Shown here piece by piece: positions 11,998 to 60,776 of a stretch of DNA of 64,000 bases. How positions within the stretch are numbered: position 1 is the first letter of the stretch; each line of letters starts with the position of its first letter. This DNA comes from Thermoguttaceae bacterium. GTDB lineage: Bacteria > Planctomycetota > Planctomycetia > Pirellulales > Thermoguttaceae. The notes beneath the pieces are model-generated. The model was not told where the DNA came from, did no database searches, and saw only the letters and a list, made by a program, of their open reading frames with translations. The stretch spans positions 1 through 64,000 of the forward strand of contig JANXAQ010000171.1 of NCBI GenBank assembly GCA_025062105.1, written 5' to 3'. The position numbers were made by a program, and so were the translations under genes.

Positions 11998-12148
11998 GAG
12001 GCTGTCTGAAAATTGAAACATCCAGCGGTTTGCCAGGACCTCGCTCAGGGGATTGCCTTTGCACCACCGCAAAAATAAGGGTTTCATTCCCATCGCAACA
12101 AAGGGCTCTCCCTACCTTCTAGCCTAAAATACTTTTTCAGATAGCCTC
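11998..12148. mobile_element. Family E element, copy E1 (~151 bp)
   Basis: The ends GAGGCTGTCTGAAAA and TTTTTCAGATAGCCTC are inverted repeats. The interior differs from E2 and E3, so E1 may be a subfamily sharing only the ends. It is followed two bases later by B5. Confidence 0.6.
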
Positions 12149-12150
12149 TT

Positions 12151-12302
12151 AGCTCGACTTTTGCCATTTTCCCTAAGTCCTTTTGTTTCCAGTAGTTACG
12201 ACGAAACCTCCTCTTGCTCAGCCAATTTCCTAAGTCCAATAGTTACAAGAAGTTAGAACTTTTCCCCTCCGGGAGGAAGCTAATAATGGCAAAGGGCGAG
12301 CT
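12151..12302 (+). mobile_element. Family B element, copy B5 (152 bp, near-intact)
   Basis: The left end AGCTCGACTTTTGCCATTTT pairs with the right end AATGGCAAAGGGCGAGCT. Internal blocks are CCTAAGTCCTTTTGTTTCC, AATTTCCTAAGTCC and AATAGTTACAAGAAGTTAG. It serves as a reference full-length copy, and it abuts A5. Confidence 0.85.
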
Positions 12303-12305
12303 AAT

Positions 12306-13907: not shown

Positions 13908-14010
13908 TAAAAACTTTTGCATAATTCAATGGAGATATTTTTATACCATTTTGGGGTGCAACGCCTCTAAGCCAATAGATTGGGTGCTAGCAAGTTAGCC
14001 AGCCTCTACG
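13908..14010 (+). mobile_element. Family A element, partial copy A6
   Basis: It has the left end (AAACTTTTGCATAATTCAAT), the conserved GATATTTTTATACCATTTTG block, and then CCAATAGATTGGGTGCTAGC. The right part is lost. From 14011 to 14300 I see nothing I can name. Confidence 0.65.
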
Positions 14011-14299
14011 GGGCGGCTGATTTTTGCGGTCCGTTTAGGGGATTTGGCAAAGATAAGTGGCACTCCGAGCCATCGAACCATCTCCCCTGCTAGCGACACC
14101 GGCTAAGAGGCTGCGTACTGTAGGAAGCAAGGAGTCGGTCGCAGCGTTTAGGCCCTATATGTTGGACGGAAGAAGGGAAGGAAAAGAGGGTTTCTATTGG
14201 TAGCTGCTATGCAAAGCTGGTTTGCAGGAGGCCGAAGCCTATTTTGGCTATATTGTCTATCTTGGCTATTTAACCCACAAAATTTCAGGCGCATCCAAG

Positions 14300-14667
14300 C
14301 ATCTATATTGGGTTAGGGGAGGGTAAGCCAAAGAAGGTATAAACATATCCCTCTGCCATGACGCCTCGCTGTTATACACATCTTTTGGGATTGGATTTCC
14401 CATCCCAATGGGCTAACGCGATTGCCCCACCCAGGGGTATAACAAACCTCTCGAAAGAAGCCAAACGTTACTTTGGCGAAATGACACCATTAGGAAAAGA
14501 TCATTTCGAAGGTCAGGAAGTGTTTGGTTTCAGAAACTGTTTTGTCTATATTGCCTGTTTTATCCATTCAATTTCCTTCCACAAACTTTCGGAATTTTCC
14601 TAAAGCGATGTCCGATCCCCGGAACTCTAACTTGTGTATAACAGCGAGGCCATGAGGCAGAGGTTCC
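14300..14667 (-). mobile_element. Family A element, copy A7, interrupted by D1
   Basis: The A body (CTATATTGGGTTAGGGGAGG, GGTATAAACATATCCCTC) is cut by the 286-bp D1 element. The end GGCAGAGGTTCC resumes on the other side. The copy lacks its far half. Confidence 0.7.
14364..14649 (+). mobile_element. Family D element, copy D1 (286 bp), nested in A7
   Basis: The ends CCTCGCTGTTATACACA and TGTGTATAACAGCGAGG are a perfect 17-bp inverted repeat. The flanks CCATGACG (14356-14363) and CCATGAGG (14650-14657) form an 8-bp target duplication with one mismatch. The interior carries AAGAAGCC, AAAGATCATTTCGAAG and TTTTGTCTATATTGCC. A short open frame (81 codons) crosses it but is not conserved in other copies. 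Confidence 0.85.
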
Positions 14668-23332: not shown

Positions 23333-23805
23333 AACCTCTCCATGGGAAGCTCGCTGTGATACCCATTTGGGAGGTATTTTCCATTCTAACGGCGGCAAAG
23401 TATTACCCCAAACAGGGGAATAACGAAGCTTTCAAAAAGAAGCATTGTTCCTTTGGAGAAATTGCAGCATTTAGGAAAGATCACTTCCAAGAACAAAAAG
23501 TGTTTGATTTCAAAGACTGTCTTAGCTAGATGACCTAATTTTTTTCATTTTCCGTTTGTTCAACTAAGCTTTTGGTATTTGCCTAAAGTGAAGTTCGAAC
23601 GCTTCAACGCCAACTTGTGTATCACAGCGAGCCATAGGAAAGGGGTAGTATCTTTTTCCATATAGGCGGACCCTCCCTCTAACCCAATATATAAGCTTGT
23701 AAGCAATTGTTAACACCTAGTGGCTAGTAGGTGTTCGGGTAAGCCATCGGCTATGGAATTAAAAGTTCATGAAGTTCCTTAGTTCAGCATCATGGAGAGG
23801 TTTCT
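23331..23805 (+). mobile_element. Family A element, copy A10, interrupted by D2
   Basis: The left end GGAACCTCTCCATGGGAA is cut by the D2 element after 18 bp. The body resumes with CATAGGAAAGGGGTAGTATC, CCCAATATATAAGC and ATGAAGTTCC, and ends near CATGGAGAGGTTTCTT. Confidence 0.75.
23349..23632 (+). mobile_element. Family D element, copy D2 (284 bp), nested in A10
   Basis: The ends GCTCGCTGTGATAC and GTATCACAGCGAGC are inverted repeats. The flanks CATGGGAA (23341-23348) and CATAGGAA (23633-23640) are an 8-bp target duplication with one mismatch. The interior matches D1 (GAAAGATCACTTCCAAG, AAAGTGTTTGATTTC). Confidence 0.85.
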
Positions 23806-23899
23806 TAATTTTATCCCAGCTAAAACACTCATTGAAATGAGATGAGAATCCCCAGATTACTCTCAAGAGGGGTTATCACCATTGGAAGGGAGTCTTCTC

Positions 23900-24050
23900 C
23901 TCTCGACTTTTGCCATTTTCCCTAACTCCTTTTGCCGCCAGTAGTTACGAGTGCCTTTCTTTTGTTCACGCAATTTCCTAAGTCCAATAGTTACAAGTAC
24001 TTAGAGTTTTGCCCTTCCGGTAGGAGGCCTAAAATAGCAAAAGTCCAGCT
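23900..24050 (+). mobile_element. Family B element, copy B9 (151 bp)
   Basis: The ends are CTCTCGACTTTTGCCATTTT and AAATAGCAAAAGTCCAGCT. The interior has CCTAACTCCTTTTGCCGCC and CAATAGTTACAAGTACTTAG. The 218 bp from here to the MoxR start carry the leader of that gene. Confidence 0.85.
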
Positions 24051-50973: not shown

Positions 50974-51452
50974 GCTCGCTGTTATACACATCTTTGGGAT
51001 TTGGGATAGATTTACCATCACAACACCAGCAAATTATTGCCCCAAATAGGGGATAACAAACCTTTCGAAAGAAGCTAACGGTATTTTGAAATTCCACAAT
51101 TTGGGAAAGATTATTTGGAAGCTCAGGAAAAAATTTGGTTTCCAAACTGTTTTGCTTATATTACTGGAATCTCTGCAAGATACTGAACGTATAGTGAACT
51201 TTGTGAACTTTTGATTCTCTAATCATTCAGTTGTCATATCCGGACAGCTACTATCTATTGGGTGCTAGCAATCCTTGCACCCTTATATGTTGTGTTAAAG
51301 GGAGCCCAAGCCAAAATGGTATAAAAGCATCCCCTTTCAATTATGCAGAGGTTCCTACCTTTTTATTCATTCTGTGTTGTTCTCCTAGTTTTCACAATTT
51401 ACCTAAAGTGATGTCCGATTCGTTGAACTCAAACTTGTGTATAACCAAGAAC
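50974..51452 (+). mobile_element. Family D element, copy D3, interrupted by A13
   Basis: It opens GCTCGCTGTTATACACATCT and closes CTTGTGTATAACCAAGAA. ACAAAAGG (50966-50973) and ACAAAGGG (51451-51458) may be an eroded 8-bp duplication. The A13 copy lies inside, after the TTTTGCTTATATTACT segment. Removing it leaves about 285 bp. Confidence 0.78.
51166..51355 (-). mobile_element. Family A element, copy A13 (190 bp), nested in D3
   Basis: The ends GGAATCTCTGCAAGATAC and AATTATGCAGAGGTTCC are inverted repeats. TACT and TACC flank it. The body has AGTGAACTTTGTGAAC, CTACTATCTATTGGGTGC and TATATGTTGTGTTAAAGG. Confidence 0.85.
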
Positions 51453-51471: not shown

Positions 51472-51764
51472 GCGACTGGTTGTTATCCACATCTTTTGGG
51501 AGGGATTTCCCATCCGAATGGCAAAGAATAATTCCCCCCAACTAGGTGGATAATGAACCTCTTAAAAGAAGCTAACTGCTACTCTGGAGAAATCACCCAT
51601 TAGAAAGATCATTACAGGAAGTTTTTGGTTTCAGAAAATATTTTGCCCATATTGGCTGTTTTATCCATTTTTCCTTCAACAGATTTTTTTCCTTCGACAG
51701 ATTTTCGGCATTTTCCCAAGGGTTGTTCGAGCCCTTGAACTCTAACTTGTGGCTCACAGCAAGC
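51472..51764 (+). mobile_element. Family D element, diverged copy D4
   Basis: It opens GCGACTGGTTGTTATCCACA and closes CTTGTGGCTCACAGCAAGC. The interior has AAGAAGCTAACTGC, AAAGATCATTACAGG and TTTTATCCATTTTTCC, with a small internal duplication (TTCCTTCAACAGATTTTT and TTCCTTCGACAGATTTTC). Confidence 0.75.
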
Positions 51765-51923
51765 CTAAAGCGTGGGGGGGTGTTTACCACTCTCAATGAT
51801 TGAGCTGTGTTGACACGGTTTCGGGTGGTTGGTATAAACCAACAAAAACTTAAGAAAAAGCGACCAGCATGGGCAACACATTCCCACACTGTAGACAAGC
51901 TTTGAACAAAGACAAAGAAAGAA

Positions 51924-55855: not shown

Positions 55856-56162
55856 AGCCGTCGCCTACTGCATTAAAGCCTCACCGGCCGTTTTGGGTAC
55901 TGTGCAGCACCTCTTTTTTTATTGTAACCTGTTTTAGCCAGGTTGTCGCCGGTGGGAGGTCCGCCAGGTATCTAAAGGGCTTTTCAGCTCGGCCGGAGGA
56001 GACTTTGTACCAGTTCCACCAAATGGACACGCTCTTATTCCTGCGCAAAGAGCAGCCTCGTTTTTTACTGGTTTCTCTGTTCTGGGCGGCTAGCTTCGCT
56101 GCAATGAAAATAGAGGCTCTCTCTAGGCTAAAAAACCCAGCTCCTTTATTTGGGGAAATGTT

Positions 56163-56313
56163 ATCTCGACTTTTGCCATTCTAGGCCTTTTCCCGGAAGG
56201 GGAAAACTCTCAGTGCTTGCCACTGTTGGAGTTAGGACATTGTGTGAACAAACGGAAGTCTCGTCGTAACTACTGGAAACAAAAGGACTTAGGGAAAATG
56301 GCAAAAGTCGAGG
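56163..56313 (-). mobile_element. Family B element, copy B18 (151 bp)
   Basis: The ends ATCTCGACTTTTGCCATTCT and AAATGGCAAAAGTCGAGG are inverted repeats. The right end lies directly against the stop codon of the minus-strand aminotransferase gene. From 55856 to 56162 I see no gene. Confidence 0.85.
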
Positions 56314-57750
56314 TTAAGAGGCTTTTTTATCCAGCAGTTCCTGTGCCGCCTGTGCCATTGTCTCAAAAACCCCTTCGATCTGGTCTTCATCCAAGCCGGA
56401 GAAGGCAAATCGTATATCTGCCGTCCCGTCAGCAATCACGCCGATGCCATGCTGCAAAAGCAGATGTTGCCGATAGCTCTCCGCATCCAGACCCTTTAGC
56501 CGCAGACACATAAAATAGCCGCTGTTAAATGGATACGGCTCCCAATAGGAGGCAAACTTGGGATTTCGGAGGATCTGGGCCACTCGGTGAGCCCGTGCTT
56601 GGAGGATCTGCTGTTTGGCATGCCGCTGGGCGTCGGTAGCCGGGTCTGCCAAAGCTTTTGCCAAAATTGTCTGGGCTGGATGGGAGCAGTTGGATATGGC
56701 ACTTCGGATGGCCCCGGCCACCTTTTTCTCCAAGGCACCATAAAGGGTAGGCGGGCTTTGGGCAGCCCAAGCGCTGAAAGTCAGCATCCCAATGCGGAAT
56801 CCCCAGACGAACTCTTCCTTGGTCGGTCCATCCACTTTGATAGCCACCAGGCGTGGGTGCAGACCAGCCAATCGGGCAAAAAGCGACTCCCGATACACAT
56901 CCTCCTGGTAAAACAGACCGAAATAGGCGTCATCCGTAAGTACCAGGAGATTTCTACCGGCCGCTGCTGTCTCGGCCAGCAGAGCCTCAATCTCTGCCGC
57001 CTCCCGCTGGGTGATCGAATACCCGGTGGGATTATTCGGGAAGTTGAAAATCAGGATGGTTTTCGGCTTGTGGGCCTGGCTGGCTAAGGCCTGCCGAAGC
57101 CCTTCTAGGCAAAACCCACCAGCCGAGTTGAAAAACGGATAGAGCACTAGTTGGGCCTGGTATCGGATACTAAATAGAAGTTCATAATTTTCCCAGAACT
57201 TATCAGGCACCAGAACCACATCCCCCGCCTCAACGAACAAATCGGCCGCCAAACTCAAGGCATGGGTAACGCCACTAGTAACAATAGGCGTGGAAAAACT
57301 CTTACCCTGTAAGCTGGGGTTTTTTCGCAGAAGACCGTCTCGCCACTTTTTACGCAGTTCCGGCAGTCCCAGAGCCGGAGCATAGGGTAAGACCTCGTCG
57401 GCCTGGAGCCCTGAAAAATACTGCATCACACTGTCCAGTCCCATCGCATGACCCTCTTGCCGGGCAATGCCAATGGTGGCATCACACCGGTGGGCCTTCT
57501 CTTTAGCTTCTGCACTTTGTGCCAGGATGCCTTTAGGAAAATAAAGCCTTCGTCCCAAGGCCGAGAACATCTCATACAGATGGGGATTCTCTTTCTGGAT
57601 GATTTCATTCAGTTCCTGGGCTAACGGTCGCAGTTGGCTTCCGGGCGGCAAATACCGAATCGGCATCGGCTGCCCAGATAGCGAGGTCAGTTGAGTTCCG
57701 GAAGCAGTTTGGCTAACTTGCACTCCACCAGACGGATCATGCTGACTCAT
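56314..57750 (-). CDS. Pyridoxal-phosphate aminotransferase, class I/II
   Basis: This 478-residue protein has a fold-type I aminotransferase core. ILIFNFPNNPTGYSITQ is the conserved NPTG region, LVLTDDAYFGLFY follows, and the PLP lysine lies in VDGPTKEEFVWGFRIGML, where the more usual sequence is SFSK. An N-terminal extension of about 55 residues precedes the core. It may act on aspartate, aromatic or branched substrates; the specificity cannot be read. AAGGAG lies 9 nt before the ATG. The gene ends directly at repeat B18. Its upstream gap of about 1 kb is filled with A elements. Confidence 0.88.
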   Translation of the reverse strand: MSQHDPSGGVQVSQTASGTQLTSLSGQPMPIRYLPPGSQLRPLAQELNEIIQKENPHLYEMFSALGRRLYFPKGILAQSAEAKEKAHRCDATIGIARQEGHAMGLDSVMQYFSGLQADEVLPYAPALGLPELRKKWRDGLLRKNPSLQGKSFSTPIVTSGVTHALSLAADLFVEAGDVVLVPDKFWENYELLFSIRYQAQLVLYPFFNSAGGFCLEGLRQALASQAHKPKTILIFNFPNNPTGYSITQREAAEIEALLAETAAAGRNLLVLTDDAYFGLFYQEDVYRESLFARLAGLHPRLVAIKVDGPTKEEFVWGFRIGMLTFSAWAAQSPPTLYGALEKKVAGAIRSAISNCSHPAQTILAKALADPATDAQRHAKQQILQARAHRVAQILRNPKFASYWEPYPFNSGYFMCLRLKGLDAESYRQHLLLQHGIGVIADGTADIRFAFSGLDEDQIEGVFETMAQAAQELLDKKAS

Positions 57751-60423: not shown

Positions 60424-60476
60424 AACCTTTGCGTCATTCGAGGGAGATTTTTTATCCCATTTTGGCTGGCCTTCCT
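60424..60476 (+). repeat. Family A left-end remnant
   Basis: AACCTTTGCGTCATTCGAGG and TTTTTTATCCCATTTTGGCT match the left part of family A. The rest is replaced by B19. The stretch 60086-60423 shows no gene. Confidence 0.55.
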
Positions 60477-60479
60477 GGA

Positions 60480-60631
60480 AATTCGACTTTTGCCATTTTC
60501 CCTAACTTCTTTTGGCCTCGAAACTTACGGATCGTCTCTCATTTGTACATACAATTTGCTAACTCTAATATTCACAGAGAGTTAGAGCGGAACACATTCG
60601 GCACAGGCTTAAAAATAGCAAAAGTCGTGCT
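60480..60631 (+). mobile_element. Family B element, copy B19 (152 bp)
   Basis: The ends AATTCGACTTTTGCCATTTT and AAATAGCAAAAGTCGTGCT are inverted repeats. The body has CCTAACTTCTTTTGG and ACAATTTGCTAACTC. Confidence 0.85.
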
Positions 60632-60634
60632 GTA

Positions 60635-60776
60635 AGCTCGACGTTTGCCATTTTTCCTAACTGCTTTTGTTTCCAAGAGTTACGCCGGAACATCCTTTTG
60701 TTCACCCAATTTCCTAAGTCCAATAGTTACAAGAAGTTAGCCTCCGAGAAGAAGCTAAAAATGGCAAAAGTCGAGG
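60635..60776 (+). mobile_element. Family B element, copy B20 (142 bp)
   Basis: The ends AGCTCGACGTTTGCCATTTT and AAATGGCAAAAGTCGAGGT are inverted repeats. It is in tandem with B19 with a 3-bp gap, and directly followed by E3. Confidence 0.85.

What the first reader, a model, noticed from the sequence alone, without database searches (positions are those of the whole stretch)
14300..14667. Family D inserted at the same place in two family A copies
D1 sits inside A7 and D2 sits inside A10, both near base 18 from the same A end. Both show an 8-bp flanking duplication with one mismatch, CCATGACG/CCATGAGG and CATGGGAA/CATAGGAA. This implies either site preference for the A end or spread of a composite A+D unit.
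Basis: seen in the sequence. Interest (0 to 1): 0.65.

Follow-up and report, generated by a model that had tools for sequence, protein, structure and literature searches.

The report
Tn5-like mini-elements nested in IS5-like ones
Two short, gene-less transposon relics (Tn5-type "D") sit at the same base of another abundant relic family (IS5-type "A") because the A end happens to match D's general landing motif; they arrived independently, so this is ordinary transposon nesting with a well-defined target rule.

Summary
D1 (14365-14648) and D2 (23350-23631) each interrupt an A element, and both duplications begin at A position 10 of the same A end. The duplication is 10 bp, not 8: GCCATGACGC/GCCATGAGGC and CCATGGGAAG/CCATAGGAAA.

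D is a ~282-bp MITE with IS50/Tn5-type ends. A complete relative in a same-family genome encodes a Tn5-like transposase and also makes a 10-bp duplication. A is a 190-bp IS5-type MITE with a 4-bp duplication.

Co-transposition of an A+D unit is refuted: D1 and D2 lie in opposite orientation relative to A, have different duplications, are only 72% identical, and their nearest D relatives are not in A.

Preference for A as such is also refuted. Only 10 of 144 D copies lie in A (7%; A is about 12% of noncoding sequence). D recognises a dyad-symmetric motif, CYYY[CYNNNNNNRG]RRRG. A matrix trained on non-A sites predicts two hot spots in A: positions 9-12 (42% of weight) and 53-64 (27%). Eight of the ten nested copies lie there. 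A general target preference that the A end fits explains the coincidence. The only mildly new point is a Tn5-like group with a 10-bp duplication and this target rule.

The parts
14365..14648 (+). D1: IS50/Tn5-type MITE, ends CTCGCTGTTATACACATCT / (rc) CTCGCTGTTATACACAAGT
14355..14364 (+). D1 left target duplication GCCATGACGC
14649..14658 (+). D1 right target duplication GCCATGAGGC
14299..14354 (-). A element (partial, model positions ~75 to 20), left of D1; the D1 duplication occupies A positions 10-19
14659..14667 (-). A terminal bases 9-1 (AGAGGTTCC), right of D1
23350..23631 (+). D2: second D copy, different D subfamily (71.7% identical to D1)
23340..23349 (+). D2 left target duplication CCATGGGAAG
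23632..23641 (+). D2 right target duplication CCATAGGAAA
23331..23339 (+). A terminal bases 1-9 (GGAACCTCT), left of D2
23642..23804 (+). remainder of the A element carrying D2 (model positions 20-190; the end is approximate)
50975..51446 (+). D3, interrupted by an A element
51166..51355 (-). A element inserted into D3 (reverse nesting)
51476..51765 (+). D4, not in A

Best explanation
D is a non-autonomous element (MITE) with ends of the IS4 family, IS50/Tn5 type. It was moved by a Tn5-like DDE transposase, most likely by cut-and-paste (inferred from Tn5). The transposase used a 10-bp staggered cut at a dyad-symmetric pyrimidine/purine target, CYYY[CYNNNNNNRG]RRRG. A is an unrelated IS5-type MITE whose left end (GGAACCTCT-GCATAATTCA-AAGGGG) happens to fit that motif with the duplicated 10-mer at A positions 10-19; a second fit lies at positions 53-64. 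A is a very abundant repeat of the noncoding DNA, so several D copies landed at these two places independently. Shown here: the 10-bp duplication, the motif, the agreement of position in A with the motif, the independence of the insertions, and the Tn5-type ends with a Tn5-like transposase in related genomes. Inferred: the enzyme that moved D in this lineage (no gene found in this assembly) and the cut-and-paste chemistry.
For: 10-bp duplication across 129-144 D copies. Target logo and matrix of 6.9 bits. A matrix trained only on non-A sites gives 42% of its weight inside A copies to duplication start 9-12 and 27% to 53-64. Observed starts are 9, 10, 10, 53, 58, 60, 60, 63, 99 (weak), 107. Eight of ten in these two intervals has P = 1.4e-7 under a uniform model and 0.37 under the matrix. 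Expected number at A 9-12 is 2.3, observed 3. D1 and D2 are independent. Ends fit the published IS50 signature CW------Y---CA-A--W- at every position for the D consensus and D1 (PMC2266710). Complete 1690-bp relative L246:1288-2977 has a perfect 10-bp duplication in GCCCCC[AGATTTATCT]GGGGGAC and a transposase matching Tn5 Tnp (E about 1e-25), PF14706 and PF01609 and the YREK signature. A: 4-bp duplication exact in 95 of 271 and an IS5-type partner with DUF772 + DDE_Tnp_1.
Against: No Tn5-like transposase was found in this genome, so the enzyme is inferred from relatives. Published IS50-subgroup duplications are 8-9 bp, not 10. D2's left end departs from the IS50 signature at two positions and its right end at one (decay). 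The 129-144 D copies come from contigs chosen partly because they hold D. Noncoding sequence was defined crudely (no ORF of 150 aa or more). Positions in A are read from profile edges and may be off by a few bases.
Confidence: 0.9

Rival explanations
1. A composite A+D unit moved as one element.
For: Two copies in one window at the same A position.
Against: Opposite D orientation relative to A; different duplications; D1-D2 identity 71.7%, with nearest relatives of about 90% outside A; the third copy at this A site (L156) belongs to yet another D group, with 97% relatives outside A.
Confidence: 0.02
2. D specifically recognises A ends, for example through A's terminal sequence or bound IS5-type transposase.
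For: 3 intact nested copies plus one half-site at A 9-10.
Against: Only 10 of 144 D copies are in A (7%) against 11.8% of noncoding sequence. As many or more hit the interior site 53-63. A matrix learned outside A predicts both places.
Confidence: 0.05
3. D targets extruded hairpins rather than a sequence motif.
For: Several sites are long palindromes: the G023 and G043 autonomous copies and the short relatives in L222 and L226.
Against: Across 97 D sites there is no excess of left-right pairing beyond column composition (z = 1.0 for the four arm positions, about 0 further out). A symmetric motif alone suffices.
Confidence: 0.15

Closest known systems
IS50 subgroup of the IS4 family (Tn5), PMC2266710
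   Same: End signature CW------Y---CA-A--W- met. D ends share TTATACACA(T/A)(C/G)T with the Tn5 mosaic and outer ends (that comparison from memory). Relatives encode a Tn5-like YREK transposase.
   Different: 10-bp duplication (published 8-9). Target CYYYCYN6RGRRRG, which differs from Tn5's GNTYWRANC-type consensus (from memory). The G023 element is 1690 bp (published range 1350-1550). D has no gene.
IS231A inserting into Tn4430 ends (from memory; target-specificity papers cited in PMC2266710 but not readable here)
   Same: An IS4-family element with a 10-12 bp duplication and a symmetric target, whose hits in another transposon's terminal repeat follow from sequence preference.
   Different: Other subgroup, ends and motif; there the transposon end is the main known target, here A is a minor one.
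IS5 family MITEs (for A)
   Same: 4-bp A/T-rich duplication; a complete 1.58-kb element with matching ends carries DUF772 + DDE_Tnp_1.
   Different: Asymmetric interior and very high copy number (471 matches in 1.72 Mb, 314 full length).

Membership tests
IS4 family, IS50 subgroup (D) | End signature CW------Y---CA-A--W- | tested here: met
   D consensus, both ends, and D1 both ends: no violation; A ends violate it
IS4 family, IS50 subgroup (D) | Direct repeats of 8-9 bp | tested here: not met
   10 bp in D and in L246; 9 bp in L269. Fits the wider IS4 family ('about 10 bp', PMC2266710)
IS4 family, IS50 subgroup (D) | Tn5-like transposase with Y(2)R(3)E(6)K | tested here: inconclusive
   Present in the relatives L246 and L269 that carry matching ends; no gene in D or found in this genome
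MITE (D) | Short, terminal inverted repeats, no transposase gene, many copies, target duplication | tested here: met
   ~282 bp, 144 unique copies collected, 10-bp duplication
IS5 family MITE (A) | 4-bp duplication and ends matching an IS5-type element | tested here: met
   95 of 271 exact 4-mers; L195 element with A-like ends and DUF772 + DDE_Tnp_1

The most novel reading that the evidence does not exclude
A Thermoguttaceae/Pirellulales branch of Tn5-like elements uses a 10-bp stagger and a dyad-symmetric C/T-then-G/A target, often at the centre of intergenic palindromes, unlike Tn5. Its orphan MITEs amplified to several hundred copies in one genome.
Probability: 0.55. Interest if true: 0.35.

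Novelty: new member of a known kind. Interest (0 to 1): 0.25.

Why it matters
It shows that two mobile elements nested at the same base need neither co-transposition nor element-specific targeting: a degenerate symmetric target motif is enough. It also adds a large natural set of insertion sites for a Tn5-type system with a different stagger and target, useful for understanding Tn5 target choice.

Tried and rejected
Eight-bp and nine-bp duplications. Composite A+D unit. A as preferred target. Hairpin requirement. Structured-RNA origin of D and of the short relatives: no Rfam match. Autonomous D partner in this genome by end pairs, PF02281, PF14706, PF01609 and the relative's protein: none found. 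An exact search of named genomes for CTCGCTGTTATACACATCTTTG gave nothing. Literature searches found no readable paper on IS231A/Tn4430 or a Tn5-like element with this target.

Full report
WHERE. The window is contig C239 of a 6.07-Mb, 345-contig genome. A relative in the same family (G023) matches records titled Thermoguttaceae bacterium RGIG7588, so the host is most likely a planctomycete of that family. That is an inference from one relative; the host genome itself is unnamed.

OBSERVATION. D1 spans 14365-14648 and D2 23350-23631; both interrupt A sequence. Profiles were built from a 1.72-Mb sample of the same genome. They give an A element of 190 bp (471 matches, 314 full length) and a D element of about 282 bp (129 full copies in the sample, 144 unique with the extra loci). 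The D duplication is 10 bp. At the exact ends of D, 30 of 129 copies have perfect 10-mers against 5 perfect 9-mers, and identity falls towards background at 8 or 9. At least 8/10 identity occurs in 91 of 144 copies against 1.6 when partners are shuffled. For D1 the pair is GCCATGACGC/GCCATGAGGC and for D2 CCATGGGAAG/CCATAGGAAA. Both duplications start at A position 10 of the CATAATTCAAAGGGG end. The A carrying D1 is only a partial match (positions 1-75).

WHAT D IS. D ends read CTCGCTGTTATACACATCT on the left and CTCGCTGTTATACACAAGT (reverse complement) on the right. The consensus and D1 fit the published IS50-subgroup signature CW------Y---CA-A--W- at all positions (PMC2266710). Among 148 relatives, short elements with similar ends occur in small numbers. 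One complete element in G023 (L246:1288-2977, 1690 bp) has ends of this type and a 504-aa transposase. It has a perfect 10-bp duplication in a C-rich/G-rich symmetric site, GCCCCC[AGATTTATCT]GGGGGAC. Its protein matches Tn5 transposase structures, Pfam PF14706 and PF01609, weakly PF02281, and carries the YREK motif. A second element (L269 in G043) has CTCGTTGTT ends and a 9-bp duplication at the centre of a palindrome; its reading frame is broken by one stop as assembled. No such gene was found in the window's own genome, so D appears to be an orphan there. Missing sequence cannot be excluded.

WHAT A IS. Its duplication is 4 bp (95 of 271 exact). A 1.58-kb element with A-like ends in C56 carries a DUF772 + DDE_Tnp_1 transposase, which is IS5-type.

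WHY THE SAME PLACE. The D target logo is symmetric: CYYY, then the duplicated CYNNNNNNRG, then RRRG. A matrix from 90 sites outside A holds 6.9 bits. Applied to real A copies, it puts 42% of its weight at duplication start 9-12, 27% at 53-64 and 7.5% at 94-108. The ten D copies found inside A start at 9, 10, 10, 53, 58, 60, 60, 63, 99 (weak match) and 107. One more copy has A ending at this site on one side only. Eight of ten in the two predicted intervals has P = 1.4e-7 under a uniform model but 0.37 under the matrix. Overall 10 of 144 D copies lie in A. The expectation is 17 from A's 11.8% share of noncoding positions, or 5.5 from the motif-weighted share. So A is not sought out. At the A end itself, 2.3 are expected and 3 observed. 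Two of those three fall in this window, which is why they looked striking.

INDEPENDENCE. D1 is on the strand opposite to its A; D2 is on the same strand. D1 and D2 are 71.7% identical, near the median for random D pairs (72.7%), while each has about 90% relatives that are not nested at the A end. A moving A+D unit would need one orientation and one D type.

SYMMETRY, NOT HAIRPIN. The arms do not show pairing beyond column composition (z = 1.0). The data support a symmetric sequence motif, as expected for a transposase dimer, and give no evidence that a hairpin must form.

NOVELTY. This is a new family of a known kind: a Tn5-type MITE. The points that depart from the published subgroup are the 10-bp duplication and the target rule. 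Failing the 8-9 bp criterion means D should be filed in the IS4 family as IS50-like, not as a strict IS50-subgroup member.

Noticed in passing
window 50975-51446: Reverse nesting: a complete A (51166-51355) lies inside D copy D3, so both families were active over overlapping periods.
   Followed up: partly
L059 1501-2535 (G000:C116): Chain of D copies separated by exactly the 10-bp duplication (CCATGGCCGG / CCGGCCATGG): repeated insertion at one target.
   Followed up: partly
L220, L222, L224, L226, L233: Related species carry 1-4 copies of 219-364 bp elements with CTCGTTGTTCTACACATCT-type ends. Several (L222, L226) sit at centres of intergenic palindromes, and L222 and L226 contain many internal hairpin-like repeats.
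   Followed up: partly
window 12146-12304, 23897-24050, 56156-56316, 60475-60740 and others: A further abundant repeat family with CTCGACTTTTGCCATTTTCCCTAACT ends; not studied.
   Followed up: no
window 13910-14667: The A sequence around D1 may be a longer element with two left-type A ends (A positions 3-92 at 13912 and 75-1 at 14299-14667) and about 300 bp of unrelated interior.
   Followed up: no
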